This document shows, piece by piece, positions 6,227 to 21,260 of a stretch of 64,000 bases of DNA. The notes below the pieces were generated by a model. The model saw only the letters and a list, made by a program, of their open reading frames with translations, ran no database searches and had not been told where the DNA came from. Each line of letters opens with the position of its first letter. Position 1 is the first letter of the stretch. Source of the stretch: Silvibacterium bohemicum (GTDB lineage Bacteria; Acidobacteriota; Terriglobia; Terriglobales; Acidobacteriaceae); NCBI RefSeq assembly GCF_001006305.1, contig NZ_LBHJ01000019.1:124001-188000 (forward strand), written 5' to 3'. The translations under genes were made by a program, and so were the position numbers.

Positions 6227-6991
6227 ATGCAGACCAATGAAAAGTTCTTTCGCAGTGAAGGGCGATCCCCTTCCGATCTTCGTCCCGTGCGGCTTACGCC
6301 GGGTTATGTGGCCACCGCCGAAGGCTCGATCCTGATCGAAGTTGGTAATACCCGGGTGCTGTGCAACGCGACCGTGGAGCAGGGCGTTCCCGCGTGGATG
6401 CGCAACAGCGGACGCGGCTGGGTGACGGCCGAGTATGGCATGCTGCCGCGCGCCACGCTCACGCGCAGCCCCCGCGAGGCCGAGCGCGGCAAAGTCGGCG
6501 GGCGCACGCATGAGATTCAACGGCTGATCGGCCGCTCCTTGCGCGCCGTAGTCGATATGCAGGCGCTGGGCGAGCGCACCGTCATTCTCGACTGCGACGT
6601 GCTGCAGGCCGATGGAGGCACGCGCACGGCGGCCATCACCGGAGCCTGCGCGGCGCTGGCCATCGCCTTCAACCGCATGCTGGCGGCCGGCGCGCTGAAG
6701 AGTTCTCCTCTGAAGCAGCTGGTTGCGGCCACCAGCGTGGGCATCGTCGAAGACACCGCGCTTCTCGATCTGGCCTACGAAGAGGACTCGCAGGCCGAGG
6801 TCGATATGAACGTGGTCATGACCGAAGACGGCGGCCTGGTCGAAGTGCAGGCCACCGCCGAACGCGTCGCCTTTCCCCGCTCCCGCATGCTGGAGATGAT
6901 GGATATGGCCGAGGCCGGCATTCGCCAGCTGCTCGACGCACAGCGGGAGGCGCTGAAGCGCGAACAACAGGAACGCGCACCGGCGAAGTAA
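6227..6991 (+). CDS. rph: Ribonuclease PH
   Basis: The 254-residue product matches RNase PH over its whole usual length (about 240-255). This phosphorolytic 3'-5' exoribonuclease trims the 3' ends of tRNA precursors. Recognisable family segments are FRSEGR and [10 protein letters not shown] at the N-terminus, [61 protein letters not shown] and [15 protein letters not shown]. The last two include the phosphate-binding and metal-binding regions. The protein acts in the cytoplasm as a hexameric ring. The stop codon lies inside the first copy of a 17-base tandem repeat, and a strong hairpin follows before the aldolase gene. Confidence 0.96.
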
Positions 6992-8534: not shown

Positions 8535-9593
8535 ATGGACCAGTCCCCTCTAATACCAAAACCGTTTCGGCTCGGGCCGTTCGTCGTTATTGCCGCGGTG
8601 GTTGGCATAGCCGCCGTTGCTTTCGCATACACTGCCGGATGGCTTTCCCCCCACAGGCTGACTCCTAAGAAGCTGGTCGCGGGATTGGCGCCGCCCGGCG
8701 GACCGGCGCTCGGCCATCGCCGCAACCACGCCAAAGGCATCTGCTTTACCGGAACACTGAACGCGAATGGGGATGGCTCGACGCTCTCCAAGGCGCAGGT
8801 TTTTGTCCGCGGTCAATATCCGGTTGTGGGACGCTTCAACCTTGCTACCGCAGATCCCAATGCAGCGGACGCCATGGTGCGTGTCCGCGGTCTCGGCATC
8901 AGCATCACTACGCCGGACGGCCAGGAATGGCGCAGCGCCATGATTGATGCGCCGATCTTTCCGGCTTCCACGCCGAAAGACTTCTACGGACTTCTGACCG
9001 CCTCCGCAAGCAAGGACCCAGATGCGATGAAGGAGTTCATTGCAGGCCATCCGGGGTTTCTTACCTTCCTCGGTTGGGCCAAAAGTGCGCCGTGGACCTC
9101 GAGCTATGCGGAAGAGCGTTACAACAGCCTCGACTCCTTTCTGTTCGTCGACCAATCCGGCGCGAAGCATCCCATTCGCTGGTCGCTGATTCCAGCGGCG
9201 CAACCGGTTCCTATCGCGCCTGGGGATCTGGCGAAACGCGGCCCCGATTATCTTGAGCAGGAGATTACTCAGCGTGTTTCCGCCAGCCCTCAACGCTGGA
9301 CTCTCGTGATCACTGTCGCAAACCCTGGCGATCCCACTGCGGATCCCAACAAGGCGTGGCCTGCGGATCGTCGCACCATCAACGCCGGTACGCTCATCGT
9401 GCAACAGATCGAGCCGGAGCGCGATGGCCCGTGCCGCGACATCAATTTCGACCCGACGGTTCTGCCTTCCGGAATTACAACGTCGGATGACCCATTCCCC
9501 GCTGCTCGCTCGGCGGCATATTCCCGGTCCTACAACAGCCGTACGGCCGAATCCTCGTATTATCCGCGTACCGACGCAGGAGCAAAGCAATGA
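8535..9593 (+). CDS. Membrane-anchored catalase-family peroxidase
   Basis: The 352-residue product is a short catalase-fold protein of the catalase-related peroxidase group, about 150 residues smaller than ordinary monofunctional catalases. An uncleaved membrane anchor (FVVIAAVVGIAAVAFAY, about residues 16-34) should place the enzyme outside the cytoplasm. The distal heme region is read in RRNHAKGICFTG, the core in YPVVGRFNLA and VRVRGLGISI, and the proximal heme ligand in RSAAYSRSY (the R-x3-Y motif) near the C-terminus. The stop codon overlaps the start of the cytochrome b561 gene (ATGA), which implies translational coupling and suggests that electrons from the membrane reach the peroxidase, or that both belong to one peroxide-handling unit. 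Confidence 0.88.
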   Translation: MDQSPLIPKPFRLGPFVVIAAVVGIAAVAFAYTAGWLSPHRLTPKKLVAGLAPPGGPALGHRRNHAKGICFTGTLNANGDGSTLSKAQVFVRGQYPVVGRFNLATADPNAADAMVRVRGLGISITTPDGQEWRSAMIDAPIFPASTPKDFYGLLTASASKDPDAMKEFIAGHPGFLTFLGWAKSAPWTSSYAEERYNSLDSFLFVDQSGAKHPIRWSLIPAAQPVPIAPGDLAKRGPDYLEQEITQRVSASPQRWTLVITVANPGDPTADPNKAWPADRRTINAGTLIVQQIEPERDGPCRDINFDPTVLPSGITTSDDPFPAARSAAYSRSYNSRTAESSYYPRTDAGAKQ

Positions 9594-10144
9594 CAACAGC
9601 CCGCACACGCTTTACAGCGCCGCAGCGATTGCTTCATTGGCTTATGGCCATCTGCATTTTGTCCATGCTGTTCATCGGTGTCGGCATGGTCTCGACCGTC
9701 ACTCCCAAATATTTGACACTGGTCCAGATTCATAAGCCGCTCGGCATCGCCATTCTCGTCCTGGTGCTCATCCGCCTGACGCTGCGCTTGATTTACGGCG
9801 CTCCGGCGCTGCCCGCCGGTCTGCCGGAGCCGATCAAGCTGGCGGCCCATCTGTCGCAGGTCATTTTGTACGCGCTGATGATTGCCATGCCCATCATCGG
9901 CTGGGCGATGCTGTCCGCCGCTGCCTACCCGGTGGTGCTCTTCGGCGGTGTCCATTTGCCACCGATCCTGCCTGTAAACCCTGGCCTGCATACGCTGCTG
10001 TGGCATGCGCATTATTACCTGGCCTTTGCCTTCTTCGCTGTCATCCTGATGCACGTTGCAGCGATTCTCTTTCACAAGCTGGTCAGAAACGACGGGGTAT
10101 TTGAAACCATGGCGCCTGTGCTTACGCACGATCGCTCAGAGTGA
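9590..10144 (+). CDS. Cytochrome b561
   Basis: The 184-residue membrane protein has four predicted helices (about residues 15-35, 45-65, 85-108 and 145-165) and the spaced His residues of bacterial di-heme cytochrome b561: RLLHWLMA in helix 1, IHKPLGI before helix 2, and WHAHYYLAF plus LMHVAAILFHKL at the C-terminus. This family passes electrons from the quinone pool, or removes superoxide, at the cytoplasmic membrane. Its ATG overlaps the stop codon of the upstream peroxidase gene by four bases, so the two proteins are probably made together. No further gene follows on this strand; the cytochrome c gene ends 139 bases away on the opposite strand. Confidence 0.92.
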   Translation: MTTARTRFTAPQRLLHWLMAICILSMLFIGVGMVSTVTPKYLTLVQIHKPLGIAILVLVLIRLTLRLIYGAPALPAGLPEPIKLAAHLSQVILYALMIAMPIIGWAMLSAAAYPVVLFGGVHLPPILPVNPGLHTLLWHAHYYLAFAFFAVILMHVAAILFHKLVRNDGVFETMAPVLTHDRSE

Positions 10145-13238: not shown

Positions 13239-13772
13239 ATGCCAGCCCGTAACGGTAGCGTGCTGTTCGAACAACTTGCGCTACCTCTGCTGCCGTCGCT
13301 TTATAGCCACGCATTCTGGCTCAGCCGAAACCAGGAAGATGCTGAAGACATCGTGCAGGAGACAATCTCCAAAGCACTGCGCGCTTTCGACTCCTTCCAA
13401 TCCGGCACCAATTTCAGAGCATGGATCTTCCGTATCCTGCGCAATACGTTCCTGACATCGCGCGCTGCCATTGCAACCTCACGCACAGTTTTCATGGAAG
13501 ACCATGTCGATCTTTTCGACGTCAGCGATCCTAGTCCGACTCCGGAAGACCACCTCCTCCGACTCGACAATCATGCGGCACTGACCGAAGCGTTGGAGCG
13601 CCTGCACCCGCAGCTTCGCGAAGTTCTATTGCTCTGCGAGATAGAGGAGCTCAAATACAAAGAAATTGCTGTCGTTCTCGACATACCGATTGGCACCGTT
13701 ATGTCGCGAATCTCTCGTGCTCGCAGAACCCTTTACGCGCAACTGAGCCAGCAAGTTGGGTCGTTGCTATGA
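13239..13772 (+). CDS. ECF-type RNA polymerase sigma factor
   Basis: The 177-residue protein has the two-domain ECF layout. Region 2 includes NQEDAEDIVQETISKALRAF and NFRAWIFRILRNTFL (about residues 30-80). Region 4 includes LHPQLREVLLLCEIEEL and a helix-turn-helix with PIGTVMSRISRARRTL (about residues 120-170). The stop overlaps the start of the zinc-finger anti-sigma gene (ATGA), the usual arrangement for a sigma/anti-sigma pair. It is closely similar to the sigma factor at 18681-19385, sharing the GTNFRAWIF..LRNTFL core. It is the likely regulator of its own operon, including the HDO-GNAT fusion gene. Confidence 0.93.
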   Translation: MPARNGSVLFEQLALPLLPSLYSHAFWLSRNQEDAEDIVQETISKALRAFDSFQSGTNFRAWIFRILRNTFLTSRAAIATSRTVFMEDHVDLFDVSDPSPTPEDHLLRLDNHAALTEALERLHPQLREVLLLCEIEELKYKEIAVVLDIPIGTVMSRISRARRTLYAQLSQQVGSLL

Positions 13773-14536
13773 TTCAAGACCATCAACATCTGAGTTACGA
13801 AGAGGTAAGCGCCTTAGTCGATGGCGAGTTGATACCACGCGACGCACACGATCTTGAGCAGCATCTGGCGTCGTGTCATTCCTGTGCCCTCAGCGTTATT
13901 TCTGCCATGCAGCTCAAGAGCGCCACGAAGCGCGCCTTTAAACGCTTCGCCCCTCCGCCAGAAGTTCTCACTCGCTTTCGAGCTCGACTTCTCCCGGAAA
14001 CGCCGAAGAATCCTGCTCGCGTTTACACAGCGCGGTCATTGATACGGGGCGCACTTGCCGCATGCCTGCTCCTTGCATTATCTCTACTCATCCGGCGAGA
14101 GGTACGCCAATCCAGCGGCCTCGCTGCGGAACTGCTCGATCAACACTTGGCTTTGCTCTCTAGCGACTCCCCGCCTGAAGTCATCTCGAGCGATCGTCAC
14201 ACCGTAAAACCCTGGTTCGACGGCAAGCTTCCATTCAGCTTCAACCTACCCGATGCATTTCCTTCCGGGACTACTCTCAAAGGTGGTGATCTCATCTTTC
14301 TCGACGGGCACCCTGCTGCGTTGCTCGTCTTCACGGTAGGCAGGCACCAGGCATCGGTCTTTCTCACGCAGAGATCGTTCGCTGGAACTCCATCCGTTGC
14401 CCGCAGAACTCTCTCCGGATTCACAATCCAGTATGCGAAAACTCAAGACCTGTATCTCACCGTCGTGAGCGATGGAAATCCCTCTGATCTCGCCCTCCTC
14501 GTGTCCGCCTTAGTAGCGGAACAATCGCCTCGTTAG
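13769..14536 (+). CDS. Zinc-finger anti-sigma factor, membrane-bound
   Basis: The 255-residue protein begins with an anti-sigma zinc finger: the H-x3-C-x2-C motif is read in EQHLASCHSC at about residues 31-40. A single transmembrane segment (RGALAACLLLALSLLI, about residues 91-106) separates the cytoplasmic sigma-binding part from a roughly 145-residue extracytoplasmic sensor domain, which contains LIFLDGHPAALLVFTVG and a Ser/Thr-rich end. The gene overlaps the sigma gene by four bases. The signal that releases the sigma factor cannot be read from the sequence. Confidence 0.88.
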   Translation: MIQDHQHLSYEEVSALVDGELIPRDAHDLEQHLASCHSCALSVISAMQLKSATKRAFKRFAPPPEVLTRFRARLLPETPKNPARVYTARSLIRGALAACLLLALSLLIRREVRQSSGLAAELLDQHLALLSSDSPPEVISSDRHTVKPWFDGKLPFSFNLPDAFPSGTTLKGGDLIFLDGHPAALLVFTVGRHQASVFLTQRSFAGTPSVARRTLSGFTIQYAKTQDLYLTVVSDGNPSDLALLVSALVAEQSPR

Positions 14537-14544
14537 GCTCGTGG

Positions 14545-16221
14545 ATGCTTCGCTTCGTCTTAGATTTTTTTGCCAATGCCCAGAATAAAAGCGGACTACG
14601 CCAGTTCTCTGATGCAGAGGTAATAACAATGTCCCGAGCACTTACCCACTCTATTCGGGTAATTGAAGAATCCGGAATATCAGAGCGGAAAGATGCAAAA
14701 CCGCAAGAAGAGATAAAACAAAATATGAATGCAAAACTTTCTTTAGATAAGTACAACCAGCTTCTCGCTCCTGCGCGAGAACGGTTTGAGACGAGCATCG
14801 GCCTCAGTGCCATTCGGTCCGGTAACGATCCGCGAATGCTGGAAGCCTTTCTCCTCTACTTCTGCGCAATCGGCGCTCAGATGACAGAACCGGTAGAGAG
14901 CTGGATTCGCCGGGCGGCCGCACGCTGCGCAGACCTTGGTTTTTCGGCACTCGCCGAAGCATTGCTTCGACATGCGCGAGCCGAAGCCGGTCATCACCTG
15001 ATGATGATTGCCGACCTTCGCTCTCTGGCAGCTCACTGGAACTTACGGCATAAGCCCCCTGTCGATGCCGATGAACTGCTGCGTGTCGCACCCAGCCGCG
15101 GAGCGAAAAACTACTGCCTGGTGCACGAGGAGAATATTGTCGGGAACACACCCTACGCACAGATTGCTATTGAGTACGAGATAGAGCAGCTTCCCCTTCG
15201 CTACGGCGGCTTGTTTGTAGCTCGATGTCTGGAAATCTTTGGACCGGATATTCTTCCCTCCATAAGCTTTGTGACTGAGCACATCGATCTCGATATCGGT
15301 CATACAAAGTTCAATGCACAGGAACTGGCAAGAGTCATCGACCAGATTCCTGAAAGCATGCCAGTCCTGGTGGCAGCAGGCGGCGCAGCATTGGATGCCT
15401 ACGCGCAATTCCTCACTGATTGTGTCGAGCTTGCTCAGCTTCATTGCCAGGCGCTCGAGGCCGTCTCGGAAGTGCCTTCCGAATTCCTGACATGGCAATT
15501 ACGCTGCCCGATCCGGGGTTCGATGAATGAATTGGAAGATTCGCCGGCAGAATGGTTGGACGAGGTAAGAGCTCTTCGTGGAGCCGCTCTCTTCGATAAT
15601 GGCAAGCGGCCAAAGTTTAAATCTGCCGATGGGTGCTATACAGACGCTGACCCGATAGATCTCTATTCATGGCATGTACTGGCATATGCCGGCGACACTC
15701 TTGCGGGTTGTGTGCGTGTCTACCCCCTGGCTGAGAACAGCCCGCCGTGTTTAACGGAAGACCTGCTGGGAGATAAATCCTTCGAGGAAACATTAGTCAA
15801 ACTCGCCTCCAATCGTGGCGATGTCATCGAGATCGGAAGATGGGTGGTGGACCCTGTCCTCCGCGCGCAGAATGGACTTGCGCCGGGCATCGGTTTACAA
15901 CTCGCCGCTAGTGCCGGAGCGCTCGCTCTCGCGCTCGTGAATCAATCGCAGTCGACAAATGCCGTAGCATTGTTTTCTGCCGGAAGCCAGGATAATCAGT
16001 ACCTGATGCTGTGTCGCCTGGGCTTGAAAACCATCTACGGACTCGAACCTGTGATCTCCGCCGAGTACAACGACGTGATACGAGTGATGTACTGCAAAGG
16101 CCCGCAAAAACTGCAGCACCGATTTCGTCGCCTGATGGATGCCATGGCAAGCCTTATGAAAATGGATCGGGCGCTCCGCATCTCATCACTTTGGAGCGCT
16201 TGTGTTGAGTTGTGCCAGTGA
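14545..16221 (+). CDS. Heme-oxygenase-like diiron domain fused to AHL-synthase-like GNAT
   Basis: The 558-residue product reads as two enzymes in one chain. Residues about 70-310 look like a heme-oxygenase-like diiron oxidase (HDO; iron-containing redox enzyme family). E147-x2-H150 lies in RHARAEAGHH, further acids in IAIEYEIEQ (E210, E212, E214), and H246-x3-D250-x2-H253 in TEHIDLDIGH, the spacing of HDO metal ligands. Residues about 335-545 look like a GNAT acyltransferase of the acyl-homoserine-lactone synthase/FeeM type, with AGCVRVYPL (387-395) and VIEIGRWVVDP (427-437). HDO enzymes of the UndA class oxidise fatty acids, and FeeM-like enzymes acylate amino acids, so an oxidised or desaturated N-acyl product is a reasonable inference. 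The gene starts 8 bases after the anti-sigma stop. A second start at 14725, with AGAAGAG upstream, would remove 60 low-complexity residues. Confidence 0.7.
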   Translation: MLRFVLDFFANAQNKSGLRQFSDAEVITMSRALTHSIRVIEESGISERKDAKPQEEIKQNMNAKLSLDKYNQLLAPARERFETSIGLSAIRSGNDPRMLEAFLLYFCAIGAQMTEPVESWIRRAAARCADLGFSALAEALLRHARAEAGHHLMMIADLRSLAAHWNLRHKPPVDADELLRVAPSRGAKNYCLVHEENIVGNTPYAQIAIEYEIEQLPLRYGGLFVARCLEIFGPDILPSISFVTEHIDLDIGHTKFNAQELARVIDQIPESMPVLVAAGGAALDAYAQFLTDCVELAQLHCQALEAVSEVPSEFLTWQLRCPIRGSMNELEDSPAEWLDEVRALRGAALFDNGKRPKFKSADGCYTDADPIDLYSWHVLAYAGDTLAGCVRVYPLAENSPPCLTEDLLGDKSFEETLVKLASNRGDVIEIGRWVVDPVLRAQNGLAPGIGLQLAASAGALALALVNQSQSTNAVALFSAGSQDNQYLMLCRLGLKTIYGLEPVISAEYNDVIRVMYCKGPQKLQHRFRRLMDAMASLMKMDRALRISSLWSACVELCQ

Positions 16222-16422: not shown

Positions 16423-18414
16423 TTAGTTGGGTAAACCAACGCGCTGCACAAGATGTTGGAAGCGCGGGTCGGAGCGGAGAGGATCGAACGCCGGCCGTAT
16501 CAGCACGCCGGGGTTGAATCGTTCCGCGTATCCCTTTTCGAGCCAATTCATCGCTTCATCCATATTTCCAAGTGACACATAGATCGCGGCAATCTCAGAA
16601 GCATGGGAATACGTGGCCGTTGAACTACTCTTCAGCTTGTTTAGAAGCTTCATGGCATCGCTCGTTCTGCCGGATAAACTGTAAGCCCGGGCAAGATTAG
16701 CGATGCATGTCGGGCTGTCTCCAGAAAGTTCGACCGCCTTTTGCAATTCTGTGATCGCCTGGTCGAACATGTGCTTCTGCATGTAGGCCTGGGCCAGTTG
16801 ATTGTGTGCCATGGCAAAGTTAGGGTCCAATGCGATGGTTTTTCGGCTTTGCTCTATGGCTGCGTCATAAGAGTGTGCAAGGACAAGCAGCTCTGCCAGA
16901 TCTGAGTTAATGATGAGAGACAACGGATCCAGGCTCTCTGCTTTTTTCATCTCCACAATCGCCCCGTCATATTGTCCCAACAGAGCCAGGTGCCAGGCAT
17001 ACCAATGGTGAGCGGTTGCGTACCCTGGGTTGAGCTCGATAGCTCGCCGAAATTCCTTTCCGCCGGAGTCCAAATCCCAGTCGAACCCATCCAGCACAAA
17101 TGCAAGCGAGGTGTGAGCTTCGCCGGGAGCGTTGTCCAATTTGATTGCATTGAGCGCTGCGGCCTTCGCTTTAGGGTAGGCCTCCCTGGGCGTCATCACA
17201 GCATATTGCCAGTCGCCCAGCAACGCATACGTATCAGCTAAGCCGGAATAGGCCTTGGCATAGTTAGGATCTTCTTCGATCGCCTGGTTGAAATAAGTAA
17301 GGGCAACCTTTAAATCATCCGCTGTTCGCTTGCTCCAAAAATATCTGCCTTTGAGATAAGACTCGTAAGCTTGCGGATCAACAACCGTCACGCTTGTCAG
17401 CGCAGCATGTTCTTGTGGCGTTAGATTGACTTGAACCTGCCCTGCAATGGCTCTTGCAACCTGATCCTGCAACGAGAGAGTATCTCGCAACTCACCCCGG
17501 TAGCTATGGGACCAGATGTGCTTGTCCGTGGAGGCGTCGATCAGCTGGGCCGTGATGCGGACCTGGTTGCCGGAACGGAGTACCGTGCCTTCCACCACCG
17601 CGTCCACATTCAGCTCCCGGGCGATTTCAGGCAGAGACTTGTGCGAACCCTTGTAGACCATTGCCGAGGTACGGGAGATCACCCGCAATGCGCTGATCTG
17701 TGCCAGGTCTGTAATCAGCTCGTCCGTCATTCCATCGGAAAAGTAATTCTGTTCCGCATCGCCAGAAAGATTCTCTAGCGGAAGCACCACCAGAGACCGG
17801 ATGGCGGCGGGCCTGTGATAGCGAGAAAGAAAAAACGAGACGGCGGGAACCGTCAAGGCTAAAGCAATCGCCAGCGCCATCAAGGCTCGATTGGTTGGCC
17901 GCAACCCAGATCCGGGCGAAGGGCTGGGCGAAACGGCCACTCCGGCGCCTTCGAGCTGAGGGAGATCCTCAATTACAGGCGGAACGCCGACCCCGTTGCC
18001 TTCGAAAGGATGCCCAGGCTCGGTCCCCATCAAGCCCGCGGATGCGGGTTCCGGCCGTCGTATGCGGCCGCTCGCGTCGACAAAAGAGACCTCCGCAATG
18101 AAACGATAACCGCGTTTGGGAAGAGTCTCGATATATCGCGGATTCTCCGCGGAATCCCCAAGCGCGCTCCGAAGCTTCGCGATCCCGATGTTCACCGCCT
18201 GGTCGGAGTCGCCAAAACTTTCGTTGGGCCACACGCGGCTGCGTAGCTCTTCCCTGGTGACGACTTCCCCGGGGCGCTCCAGCAAAACCTCCAGCAGTTT
18301 AAGCGGCTGCTGTTGGACCCTGATTCTCACACCCGCTCTGCGCAACTCGCCCGATTGCAGGGAAACCTCAAAGGTCCCGAATCGCACGATGGAGGTCTGC
18401 TGCAGTGGTTCCAT
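16423..18414 (-). CDS. CadC-like winged-helix regulator with TolB-like domain and TPRs
   Basis: The 663-residue protein has an OmpR/PhoB-type winged-helix DNA-binding domain (about residues 8-110, with LEVLLERPGEVVTREELRSRVW and the closing IETLPKRGYRFIAEV), a Pro/Gly-rich linker, one membrane helix (about 177-197, ALMALAIALALTVPAVSFFL), a TolB/FlgO-like domain (about 205-330, VVLPLENLSGD and VDAVVEGTVLRSG), and a long run of tetratricopeptide repeats (about 340-650). This makes it a one-component membrane-bound regulator whose sensory part is outside the cytoplasm. This design is frequent in Acidobacteria. It diverges from the second ECF sigma gene. Target genes cannot be read from the sequence. 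Confidence 0.88.
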   Translation of the reverse strand: MEPLQQTSIVRFGTFEVSLQSGELRRAGVRIRVQQQPLKLLEVLLERPGEVVTREELRSRVWPNESFGDSDQAVNIGIAKLRSALGDSAENPRYIETLPKRGYRFIAEVSFVDASGRIRRPEPASAGLMGTEPGHPFEGNGVGVPPVIEDLPQLEGAGVAVSPSPSPGSGLRPTNRALMALAIALALTVPAVSFFLSRYHRPAAIRSLVVLPLENLSGDAEQNYFSDGMTDELITDLAQISALRVISRTSAMVYKGSHKSLPEIARELNVDAVVEGTVLRSGNQVRITAQLIDASTDKHIWSHSYRGELRDTLSLQDQVARAIAGQVQVNLTPQEHAALTSVTVVDPQAYESYLKGRYFWSKRTADDLKVALTYFNQAIEEDPNYAKAYSGLADTYALLGDWQYAVMTPREAYPKAKAAALNAIKLDNAPGEAHTSLAFVLDGFDWDLDSGGKEFRRAIELNPGYATAHHWYAWHLALLGQYDGAIVEMKKAESLDPLSLIINSDLAELLVLAHSYDAAIEQSRKTIALDPNFAMAHNQLAQAYMQKHMFDQAITELQKAVELSGDSPTCIANLARAYSLSGRTSDAMKLLNKLKSSSTATYSHASEIAAIYVSLGNMDEAMNWLEKGYAERFNPGVLIRPAFDPLRSDPRFQHLVQRVGLPN

Positions 18415-18680
18415 ATTGATGTTTTTTCCCGAAGTCTAGCATTTTGCCCGGTCATGCTTCGCGAATGCAGGAGAAGAGATCTTCGTCCTCCGTGCGTTTG
18501 CGCACCTGTGCCGAGTATATCCGCAGAGATAACCGCCTTCGCCATCAAGCACTTGCCGGGCAATGAACCGGCTATGAGGAGAAAAGGTCGGGTGAATGGA
18601 TGCCTGCTGTCCAAGCGGTCATTGTTGAGATGCGATTCGGGAGAAGACAATTGACACTCATTGGCTTTAGCCCGCGGGGC

Positions 18681-19385
18681 ATGGTCCATCTTGGACCTTC
18701 ACCCGCGCGGGACGATTGTTCCTCGGTCGGATTCGAAGAATTGGCCTTGCCGTTGTTCGACTCCCTTTACCACTTCGCGCGCTGGCTTGCGCAGAACCAG
18801 AGCGATGCCGAGGATCTCGTGCAAGAGACTTATTTGAAGGCTCTACGCGGCTTCAAATCGTTTGAGCCTGGCACCAATTTCCGGGCATGGATATTCCAGA
18901 TCCTGAGGAACACGTTTTTAGGTTCATGTACAAAGCTCGAGCGGCGCATGACCGTGATGCTGAGCTCGGAGGAGGATATACCTCCAATTTTCGCCACTCC
19001 CGAATCTCTGTTCCTCCGCTATTCGGAAATCGACGCCGTGCGATGTGCAATCGAGCAGCTGCCCGCCAAGTTCCGCGAAATCATTCTGCTGTGCGACGTT
19101 GAAGATTTGTCTTACCGGGAGATTGCGGAGATATTGTCGATCCCGATGGGAACCGTTATGTCACGCCTAGCCAAAGCCCGAAAGACGCTTCGGGAATCCC
19201 TTCGGAGTACTCGCTGTACGCCAACGTCAGCAGACTTGCCTCATCCCGGCCCTCACCTGAAGAAGCGAAATACTCTCGCGTCGAGGGACGCCGGAGAGCG
19301 TCAGCTCTTCAGAACTTCCTCGGACGAGACATTTGAAGCCGCCGAGAGAGAGCCGCTCATCGCCGTGCCAACGTGTTGCGGATGA
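18681..19385 (+). CDS. ECF-type sigma factor with long C-terminal tail
   Basis: The start at 18681 gives 234 residues. Alignment with the sigma factor at 13239 supports it, since both begin a few residues before a (F)E(E/Q)LALPL segment. Region 2 is seen in NQSDAEDLVQETYLKALRGF and NFRAWIFQILRNTFL, region 4 in LPAKFREIILLCDVEDL and PMGTVMSRLAKARKTL. After region 4 about 60 extra residues follow that are Arg/Ser/Thr-rich and unlike any domain I recognise, possibly because the ancestral stop codon has been lost. Unlike its paralogue, it has no zinc-finger anti-sigma gene behind it. The CadC/TPR regulator is divergent and the heme peroxidase gene converges on it. Confidence 0.85.
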   Translation: MVHLGPSPARDDCSSVGFEELALPLFDSLYHFARWLAQNQSDAEDLVQETYLKALRGFKSFEPGTNFRAWIFQILRNTFLGSCTKLERRMTVMLSSEEDIPPIFATPESLFLRYSEIDAVRCAIEQLPAKFREIILLCDVEDLSYREIAEILSIPMGTVMSRLAKARKTLRESLRSTRCTPTSADLPHPGPHLKKRNTLASRDAGERQLFRTSSDETFEAAEREPLIAVPTCCG

Positions 19386-19711: not shown

Positions 19712-21043
19712 TTAAGAAGCAAGCAGCTCGCTCAGCGTCTTGTGAGGTTGCCAATTCCGGTCACTGCAGCGAAACGATGTCGAGTCCGCATCGATGAGCC
19801 CAACCAAAACCTCCGCAACGATCCGGCCACCTACCGGACCAAGATAATTACCACCTGTGCAGATGTCGGCTTCGCGGAGAATGTAGTACCACAGAGGAGT
19901 TTCGCCACTCCATCCCGCAGAAGCAATGCCCACCTGTTCCGCGGTGAGCGGTTCAATTCCAAGATGACGAGCCACAGTTTCGCCGGACGGTAATCCCACG
20001 CCCTGTCCCCGTTGCAGATCACGGACAGCCAAAGAATGATAATCCTCAATCTCGACGTCGCCGGTGACTGCTATCGGCAACTCGATGAGCGGGCGCACAA
20101 GTTTCCCATCGATCTTCTTTGAGCGCTGGGCCGACGTCCTTTCTGGTGCGTCGAAAAACAGCTTCCAGTCGACCATGTGCTGATGCGGTACCGCACGGAA
20201 GCCGAGCAGATCAGGAAACAGCGGCAGAGGATCAGTCTGTGAATTCAATTGGTACCGATGGCGAATCTGACAGTGTCCATAGCGGTAAGCTGCATCGGCA
20301 AATTCAAGTGGTATGAATCCACCATGATCGGGACGAAACCATTGCGGACCATCGCGAAGCACCTCAGCCGCAAGTGTTGATCCGACAAGTGAAGGCAAAA
20401 ACTCGTGAAGAACAATCCATTGATAATGCCATTGCAACTGGCGGACCGCTTCAATGAATGCGCTATCGTTCGGCATCCCCGCGACACGAGCTTCATCGAC
20501 GAATGCATTATGAGCCTTCAGCATAGCGAGATGCAGCTGCGATATCAGCATGTGCGAATCGTTGCGCGGATCTCCAATAATCGCAGTTCCCTCTACGTTC
20601 CGCTGAAGATCCGCTCCCTGCGGGCCGAGCAGGAACTTCGCCGGATCGTCACGCTGGTAAAGGAAGGGTTGGCCCGTCGGTCCATCGCCGTAAAGGTTTT
20701 CAAGATTGAGCTTTGGGCTGCGTGCGTTGAGGAGAGCCTCCGTTCGAGTTTGCGACTGCAGGATCGATCGGTCAGCTGTTATGTCGTGGGCTACAAATTG
20801 GCCGAAGATAGGCCAACCGGCTGCGGCATCTCCAAGAGACTCGGAGGTATCACCGACGTCTCCGCAATCGCATATACCTCCTGCACGACCGAGCGCGTGC
20901 AGGAATTGCTCATCGGCGCGGAAGGAAGGCAAATCGGGAAACATTCGAGCATACATTGCGGGGCCAAGAGGCGCATCGATGGCAACATGGGCTCGCGCGG
21001 GCGACAGGCAGTGATTTCGGACGGATGCGGCGCATTGATGCAT
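19712..21043 (-). CDS. Animal-type heme peroxidase
   Basis: The 443-residue product belongs to the animal heme peroxidase superfamily (peroxidase-cyclooxygenase). The distal heme His is read in WPIFGQFVAHDITADRS, the following structural motifs in GDPRNDSHMLISQLHLAM and LKAHN, the hydrophobic helix in WHYQWIVLHEFLPSLVG, and the proximal His in AAYRYGHCQIRH. It lacks a clear signal peptide, so secretion is uncertain. The start at 21043 is chosen over 21061 because GAGGAG lies ten bases upstream. Bacterial members are scattered; the reaction is probably hydrogen-peroxide-driven oxidation of halides or organic substrates, but the substrate is unknown. Together with the catalase-like enzyme at 8535 it adds to a peroxide theme. 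Confidence 0.85.
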   Translation of the reverse strand: MHQCAASVRNHCLSPARAHVAIDAPLGPAMYARMFPDLPSFRADEQFLHALGRAGGICDCGDVGDTSESLGDAAAGWPIFGQFVAHDITADRSILQSQTRTEALLNARSPKLNLENLYGDGPTGQPFLYQRDDPAKFLLGPQGADLQRNVEGTAIIGDPRNDSHMLISQLHLAMLKAHNAFVDEARVAGMPNDSAFIEAVRQLQWHYQWIVLHEFLPSLVGSTLAAEVLRDGPQWFRPDHGGFIPLEFADAAYRYGHCQIRHRYQLNSQTDPLPLFPDLLGFRAVPHQHMVDWKLFFDAPERTSAQRSKKIDGKLVRPLIELPIAVTGDVEIEDYHSLAVRDLQRGQGVGLPSGETVARHLGIEPLTAEQVGIASAGWSGETPLWYYILREADICTGGNYLGPVGGRIVAEVLVGLIDADSTSFRCSDRNWQPHKTLSELLAS

Positions 21044-21260
21044 GATCCCTCTGCTCCTCATTTCGTTTGTCTTTATAAAGATTGTGACACCGGCCGGTCA
21101 TTCGGATCTAATCACCTGTTCCCCGGCATGGCAAGACGTTTCTCGATACGCCGATCAGAATCAGCCATATAAGTGTAGGGAGGATGCCGCCTCGCCTATC
21201 CTCGTTTTCCAAGACAAGACAGCTGCTCGAAATGTGACAAGAAAATGGGTTATCAAAAAT

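What the first reader, a model, noticed from the sequence alone, without database searches (positions are those of the whole stretch)
14545..16221. Fusion of a heme-oxygenase-like diiron domain with an AHL-synthase/FeeM-like acyltransferase
One reading frame joins an HDO-type metal site (E147-x2-H150 and H246-x3-D250-x2-H253) to a GNAT domain with GCVRVYPL and EIGRWVVDP. HDO enzymes such as UndA act on fatty acids, and FeeM/LuxI-like enzymes transfer fatty acyl groups to amines. A single protein doing both could make an oxidised or desaturated N-acyl amino acid or signal molecule. I know of no characterised protein with this pairing.
Basis: partly seen in the sequence, partly recalled or inferred. 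Interest (0 to 1): 0.75.

Follow-up and report, generated by a model that had tools for sequence, protein, structure and literature searches.

The report
Diiron oxidase fused to N-acyltransferase
An acidobacterium carries one gene that joins an iron-type oxidase to an enzyme of the kind that puts acyl groups on amines, which suggests an unstudied one-protein route to an oxidised N-acyl compound; the product is unknown.

Summary
One frame encodes an N-terminal haem-oxygenase-like dimetal oxidase (HDO) domain and a C-terminal GNAT domain of Pfam Acetyltransf_5. The true start is probably ATG 14725 (498 aa), not 14545. The HDO part gives a confident all-helical model whose best PDB matches have the haem-oxygenase-like fold (CADD, TM 0.82 by target). 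Six expected ligands (E147, H150, E214, H246, D250, H253) are invariant in 8 of 8 aligned sequences. The GNAT fold could not be modelled and rests on the Pfam score.

The fusion is rare: found here and in Acidobacteriaceae KBS 83, where the frame is broken inside the HDO part. In a third Acidobacteriota genome the two parts are adjacent genes overlapping at TTGA, although that GNAT carries an internal deletion. More distant HDOs lie beside acyl-chemistry genes in Pseudomonadota. The closest outside GNAT relative found is fused to ThiF in Streptomyces, recalling the Tyz/Oxz acyl-oxazolone pathways. Both halves are known families; the pairing in one chain was seen in none of the papers searched.

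Best reading: a bifunctional enzyme that oxidises and N-acylates one small amine, probably an amino acid. Substrate, order of steps and product are inferred, not shown.

The parts
14725..16221 (+). Fusion gene, probable true CDS (498 aa, P0002)
14545..14724 (+). In-frame 5' extension, probably untranslated leader
   Evidence: GC 0.42, GC3 0.37; the KBS 83 relative has an in-frame stop three codons before its Met
14725..15459 (+). HDO domain (residues 61-305 of the 558-aa frame; limits approximate)
   Evidence: model and PDB fold matches; profile match to a set of HDOs
14983..14994 (+). Predicted metal ligands E147 and H150 (E-x2-H)
   Evidence: invariant in 8 of 8
15184..15186 (+).
   Evidence: invariant in 8 of 8
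15280..15303 (+). Predicted metal ligands H246, D250, H253 (H-x3-D-x2-H)
   Evidence: invariant in 8 of 8
15460..15492 (+). Linker; in L008 the gene boundary falls in this region
15493..16221 (+). GNAT domain (Acetyltransf_5), predicted N-acyltransferase
   Evidence: PF13444 28.6 bits, cut-off 22.4; L005 35.9 and L008 34.2 bits
15658..15840 (+). Stretch holding D372, R391, E429, R432, invariant across the GNAT set
   Evidence: 5 of 5; their match to the core residues of AHL synthases is recalled, from no call
13239..13772 (+). ECF sigma factor gene upstream
   Evidence: PF08281, PF04542
13769..14536 (+). Zinc-finger (zf-HC2) anti-sigma-like gene upstream; may govern the fusion gene
   Evidence: PF13490 24.7 bits, cut-off 22.2; the regulatory link is inferred

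Best explanation
A bifunctional biosynthetic enzyme. The N-terminal HDO domain binds two metals (iron most likely) with a three-histidine, three-carboxylate set and uses O2 to oxidise a small amine, probably an amino acid or its derivative. The C-terminal GNAT domain moves an acyl chain from acyl-CoA or acyl-ACP to that amine. The output would be an oxidised (desaturated, hydroxylated, cleaved or decarboxylated) N-acyl amino acid or amide. SHOWN: domain make-up, HDO fold by model, ligand conservation, Pfam assignment of the GNAT, linkage of both parts in three Acidobacteriota genomes. INFERRED: metal identity, both activities, that one substrate passes through both, the order of steps (I lean to oxidation first; the reverse is the Tyz logic), and control by the upstream ECF sigma pair.
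For: HDO: pLDDT 74-95 in 23 of the 24 ten-residue blocks of residues 1-240 of P0002, 68 in the other; the 12 PDB matches with E <= 0.001 are 3dde, CADD and CADD-like, TenA and haem oxygenase entries, CADD TM 0.82 and 3dde 0.76 by target length; profile match E 6e-11, 0 of 100 shuffles; six ligands invariant in 8 of 8. GNAT: PF13444 above cut-off in the window, L005 and L008. Linkage: in KBS 83 the second half of the HDO part and the GNAT share one open frame; separate genes overlapping at TTGA in G429. In draws of 396 Acidobacteriota the HDO profile hits 2 genomes and the GNAT profile the same 2 plus one that I rejected as chance. A distant HDO in G764 has an Acetyltransf_5 gene about 210 bp downstream on the same strand. 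Precedent for the logic: TyzA N-acylates Tyr/Phe, TyzC desaturates the product, TyzB (ThiF homolog) cyclises it (PMC10404671, abstract and passages seen), and this GNAT's closest outside relative found is fused to ThiF in Streptomyces (hhalign 98.6%, E 6e-16, 0 of 100 shuffles).
Against: No activity is shown. The GNAT domain could not be modelled (pLDDT 36.6; its Foldseek list has no match with E <= 0.001) and FeeM's Pfam model is below cut-off (14.3 vs 27 bits). KBS 83 has reading-frame breaks and the G429 GNAT lacks about 24 residues, so an intact fusion is seen only in the window. In L006 the HDO stands without a recognised GNAT on a 6.6-kb contig. The G764 pairing is not kept: of 4 genomes with its HDO among 150, only G764 also matches its GNAT, and that GNAT does not match the window GNAT profile beyond shuffles (6 of 100 reach the score). 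No pathway gene was recognised among the seven neighbouring proteins scanned.
Confidence: 0.6

Rival explanations
1. The HDO domain acts on the fatty chain (UndA-like) and the GNAT only attaches that chain to an amine or to a membrane-lipid head group such as ornithine.
For: The G764 GNAT gives hits far below cut-off to ornithine N-acyltransferase and exosortase-associated acyltransferase models. UndA is among the PDB matches (rank 49, TM 0.67 by target).
Against: CADD and 3dde match better than UndA. [quoted passage not shown] No fatty-acid gene was recognised among the seven neighbouring proteins scanned.
Confidence: 0.17
2. The two domains are joined for dosage or scaffolding only and serve different substrates; the fusion has little chemical meaning.
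For: HDO without a recognised GNAT in L006; patchy distribution, 2 of 100 relatives with the own genome counted and 2 of 396 phylum genomes; damage in two relatives.
Against: Same order of parts in KBS 83 and overlapping genes in G429; strong HDO and GNAT hits fall in the same genomes.
Confidence: 0.13
3. A decaying gene with no current function.
For: Frame breaks in KBS 83, deletion in the G429 GNAT, few genomes with a match.
Against: The window copy is open over 498 codons with the predicted ligands and the GNAT invariant residues kept.
Confidence: 0.1

Closest known systems
Haem-oxygenase-like dimetal oxidases (HDOs: CADD, UndA, HrmI, AetD, PolF, MboA)
   Same: Fold by model and the 3H/3C ligand set (set as described in passages of PMC13108848)
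   Different: Fused to an acyltransferase domain; the review says SznF, with its cupin, differs in this from other characterised HDOs. Direct PF14518 signal is only sub-cut-off in close relatives (P0003 E 0.0039, L008 E 0.0016) and absent in P0001.
TyzA/TyzB/TyzC and OxzA/OxzB acyl-oxazolone pathways
   Same: N-acyltransferase of the FeeM/AHL-synthase structural kind working with an oxidase; fusion habit (OxzB is ThiF-nitroreductase) (PMC10404671 passages)
   Different: The oxidase there is a flavin enzyme of the nitroreductase superfamily, here an HDO; no ThiF or nitroreductase domain in P0001 or in the seven neighbours scanned.
FeeM N-acyl amino acid synthase (PF21926)
   Same: Weak profile similarity (14.3 bits)
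   Different: Below the 27-bit cut-off; not a member by that test.
T_hemolysin - AMP-binding - HDO - SDR operons of Pseudomonadota
   Same: HDO beside acyl-chemistry genes; the HDOs are homologous
   Different: T_hemolysin could not be tied to this GNAT (9 of 100 shuffles reach the score); no AMP-binding or SDR domain among the seven window neighbours scanned.

Membership tests
HDO superfamily | Haem-oxygenase-like all-helical fold | tested here: met
   by predicted model:
HDO superfamily | 3H/3C ligand set | tested here: met
   E147, H150, E214, H246, D250, H253 invariant in 8 of 8; definition from passages of PMC13108848
HDO superfamily | PF14518 score over cut-off | tested here: not met
   No PF14518 hit listed for P0001 at E<=10; P0003 17.5 and L008 18.7 bits, cut-off 28.9. 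The profile-profile match stands in its place.
HDO superfamily | Binds two metals and activates O2 | not testable with these tools
   needs purified protein
GNAT Acetyltransf_5 (PF13444) | Score over curated cut-off | tested here: met
   28.6 vs 22.4 bits
GNAT Acetyltransf_5 (PF13444) | GNAT fold | tested here: inconclusive
   model pLDDT 36.6; no Foldseek match with E<=0.001
FeeM N-acyl amino acid synthase (PF21926) | Score over curated cut-off | tested here: not met
   14.3 vs 27 bits
LuxI-type AHL synthase (Pfam Autoind_synth, name recalled) | Hit to its Pfam model | tested here: not met
   not among the two families listed at E<=10 (HMMER filters drop most weak matches)
Acyl-oxazolone (Tyz/Oxz) system | GNAT-type acyltransferase + nitroreductase-superfamily oxidase + ThiF | tested here: not met
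   no ThiF or nitroreductase domain in P0001 or in the seven window proteins scanned; the rest of the genome was not searched for them

The most novel reading that the evidence does not exclude
A self-contained oxidase-acyltransferase: one polypeptide that oxidises an amino acid (desaturation, C-C cleavage or oxidative decarboxylation) on a dimetal HDO site and N-acylates it, giving a diffusible N-acyl enamide or dehydro-amino-acid made under ECF sigma control in Acidobacteriota, the HDO counterpart of the Tyz/Oxz pathways.
Probability: 0.3. Interest if true: 0.75.

Novelty: new variant of a known kind. Interest (0 to 1): 0.52.

Why it matters
The HDO superfamily is put at more than 10,000 members, with about a dozen functionally validated (PMC13108848 passages), and substrates are hard to guess from sequence. 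A fused N-acyltransferase names the chemical neighbourhood of the substrate, an amine that becomes acylated, and gives a single gene to express and assay. If the chemistry is right, it would be a new way to make oxidised N-acyl amino acids, with a non-haem dimetal site in place of the flavin enzyme of Tyz/Oxz.

Tried and rejected
Sequence against the PDB: P0001 gave nothing at E<=10, the GNAT profile A4 nothing, the HDO profile A7 only 3dde at E 0.05. Profile A6 reached 3dde, CADD and MboA, but A6 includes Pseudomonadota HDOs, so one search is the better test of the window family. The T_hemolysin profile A5 gave one weak match, CmaX, E 0.037.

Tie of T_hemolysin to the window GNAT: 9 of 100 shuffles reach the score; not claimed. 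Tie of the G764 GNAT to the window GNAT by profile: 6 of 100 shuffles reach it; only the shared Pfam hit is claimed. The third GNAT hit in Acidobacteriota (G187, E 3.5e-4) was dropped as chance: it lies in a frame antisense to a longer one with several CxxCH motifs, by my reading of the translation.

Viral contigs with P0003: no match. Plasmids with P0003: no match at E<=1. Plasmids with the G764 GNAT: no match. PHROGs, PADLOC, Rfam and the phage collection were not searched. I looked in the stieleriacine (N-acyl dehydrotyrosine) paper PMC12479983 for desaturase, dehydrogenase, iron, heme and GNAT: no occurrence of these words in its main text, so it gave no lead to an HDO.

Of the 20 plasmid records with an HDO like that of G764 I opened 9, chosen for spread of genera: 7 have genes annotated thermostable hemolysin, AMP-binding and SDR, 1 has no annotation there (H10), 1 differs (H21). 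The other 11 were not opened. T_hemolysin was confirmed by Pfam in the 2 proteins scanned.

Full report
WHAT IS THERE. The window lies in a 6.46-Mb genome of 25 contigs. I take it for an acidobacterium because genome G048, listed as the same family, carries its match on a contig of the same length as a KBS 83 scaffold titled Acidobacteriaceae. Frame 14545-16221 (+) is open for 558 codons. The first 60 codons look non-coding: GC 0.42 and GC3 0.37 against about 0.55 and 0.57-0.58 for the two domains, and the KBS 83 relative starts at the matching methionine, three codons after an in-frame stop. I take 14725-16221 (498 aa) as the gene. Upstream lie an ECF sigma factor (13239-13772) and a zf-HC2 anti-sigma-like gene (13769-14536) on the same strand; downstream is a convergent gene, 16423-18414 (-), with a DNA-binding Trans_reg_C domain and TPR repeats.

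N-TERMINAL DOMAIN. No Pfam hit on its own. Two close relatives give sub-cut-off PF14518 hits: P0003 17.5 bits, E 0.0039; L008 18.7 bits, E 0.0016. A profile of the window family (A7, 5 rows from 4 sources) against a profile of five other HDOs (A8) gives 97.1% probability and E 6e-11. Two of those five were scanned with Pfam and both pass PF14518. The score is 76.3 against a maximum of 22.7 in 100 column shuffles; the reversed control scores 10.9. In an alignment of 8 HDO sequences (A6; the KBS 83 pieces were not in it) the residues invariant in 8 of 8 are E147, H150, D157, P203, E214, H246, D250, H253 and Y286. Six of these fit the 3H/3C set that the 2026 review describes (PMC13108848, passages seen). 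AlphaFold2 on a four-row alignment gave pLDDT 74-95 in 23 of 24 blocks of residues 1-240 of P0002, mainly helical. Foldseek against the PDB gave 12 matches with E <= 0.001: 3dde, CADD (TM 0.82 by target), a CADD-like protein, haem oxygenase HmuO and TenA. HrmI, AetD, UndA and PolF follow in the 50 rows shown. The model was full length with an unreliable C-terminal half, so TM by query is low (0.27-0.38 in the rows shown).

C-TERMINAL DOMAIN. PF13444 Acetyltransf_5, 28.6 bits against a cut-off of 22.4; the same family in KBS 83 (35.9) and L008 (34.2). FeeM's model is below cut-off. Five GNAT sequences share D372, R391, E429, R432, R440, four glycines and one leucine; that D, R and E-x2-R correspond to the core of AHL synthases is recalled. 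The structure job gave no usable model (pLDDT 36.6) and its Foldseek search no match with E <= 0.001, so the GNAT fold is not shown by structure. The strongest outside match found is the N-terminal part of a 622-aa Streptomyces plasmid protein with a ThiF domain, next to a beta-ketoacyl-ACP synthase III gene: hhalign 98.6%, E 6e-16, 0 of 100 shuffles.

RELATIVES AND LINKAGE. Relatives drawn: 2 of 100 genomes have a match, own genome included. GTDB contigs: 17 stretches matched a pattern, 2 encode a relative. L005 (KBS 83) holds both domains in the same order; its HDO part is broken into reading-frame pieces, while the second half of the HDO part and the GNAT share one open frame. I left the breaks as they are. 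HDO profile: 2 of 396 Acidobacteriota, 1 of 14 in G429's family (G429 itself), 2 of 398 genomes around the L006 genome, that genome included. GNAT profile: 3 of 396 Acidobacteriota, the same two plus one rejected. KBS 83 (G048) is among the hits of neither draw; I take it that it was not drawn, which the cut lists do not show. In G429 the HDO gene (cut by the contig end) and the GNAT gene overlap at TTGA; a sequencing slip in a fusion cannot be excluded. That GNAT lacks about 24 residues after the GRWGVHP stretch, so it may be inactive or misassembled. L006 has the HDO without a recognised GNAT on a 6.6-kb contig with an aromatic amino acid lyase and an O-methyltransferase, which hints at aromatic amino acid chemistry in that relative.

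WIDER CONTEXT. In G764 a Pfam-positive HDO (59.4 bits) is followed about 210 bp downstream, on the same strand, by an Acetyltransf_5 protein (32.4 bits). Relatives of that HDO occur in 4 of 150 genomes of its order, relatives of its GNAT in 7 of 150, and only G764 is in both lists, so this pair is not conserved. On plasmids, 20 records carry an HDO of this kind. Of 9 opened, 7 have a gene annotated thermostable hemolysin, an AMP-binding and an SDR gene around it, and in two of these (H5, H19) the HDO match lies inside the AMP-binding gene. G895 has a like AMP-binding-HDO frame, followed by an SDR-like gene (the AMP-binding and SDR labels are my reading of the translation). In this subgroup, then, HDOs sit with acyl-activating genes, but T_hemolysin itself could not be tied to the window GNAT.

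HOW IT PROBABLY WORKS. The dimetal HDO site oxidises an amine-bearing small molecule, and the GNAT part acylates the amine from acyl-CoA or acyl-ACP. Precedent for pairing an N-acyltransferase with an oxidase is Tyz/Oxz (PMC10404671, abstract and passages). [quoted passage not shown] one of the five is UndA, whose substrate is a fatty acid). Tyz runs the other way, acylation first. None of these steps has been shown for this protein.

NOVELTY. The held PMC library was searched for HDO terms with N-acyltransferase, with GNAT, with fusion, with lipid and with bifunctional (three of these five returned no paper). None of the papers listed has a title or abstract start that points to an HDO-acyltransferase fusion, and the review text holds neither 'acyltransferase' nor 'fusion'. 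Most subscription journals are not held, so this is not proof of absence. Both halves are known families; the combination is new to me. I therefore call it a new variant of a known kind.

Noticed in passing
L016, L017, L018, L019, L031, L033, L034: A recurring gene order on Pseudomonadota plasmids: thermostable hemolysin (T_hemolysin), AMP-binding, HDO (separate, or inside the AMP-binding gene), SDR, often followed by a TPR or hypothetical gene. 7 of 9 records opened out of 20. Titles and abstract starts listed did not describe it.
   Followed up: partly
L010:9890-11758: Streptomyces plasmid protein fusing this GNAT type to a ThiF domain, followed by a KAS III gene: a possible relative of the Tyz/Oxz acyl-oxazolone pathways.
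   Followed up: partly
L006:1079-4785: HDO gene beside an aromatic amino acid lyase (PF00221, opposite strand) and an O-methyltransferase in a proteobacterial MAG contig: may be part of an aromatic pathway; the literature was not searched for it.
   Followed up: no
window 19712-21061 (-): Animal-haem-peroxidase-like protein (PF03098) next to a second ECF sigma gene at 18600-19385 (+).
   Followed up: no
window 8535-10144 (+): Catalase-family protein (PF00199) followed by what reads as a cytochrome b561-like membrane protein (label from the translation, no family search).
   Followed up: no
G000:C16:754032-754340 (L013): The same genome holds a second, much stronger Acetyltransf_5 protein (106.6 bits against 31.8 for the fusion), far from the window.
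   Followed up: no
L005 about 6318-6389: The KBS 83 copy has reading-frame breaks inside the HDO domain; sequencing error or decay cannot be told apart here.
   Followed up: partly
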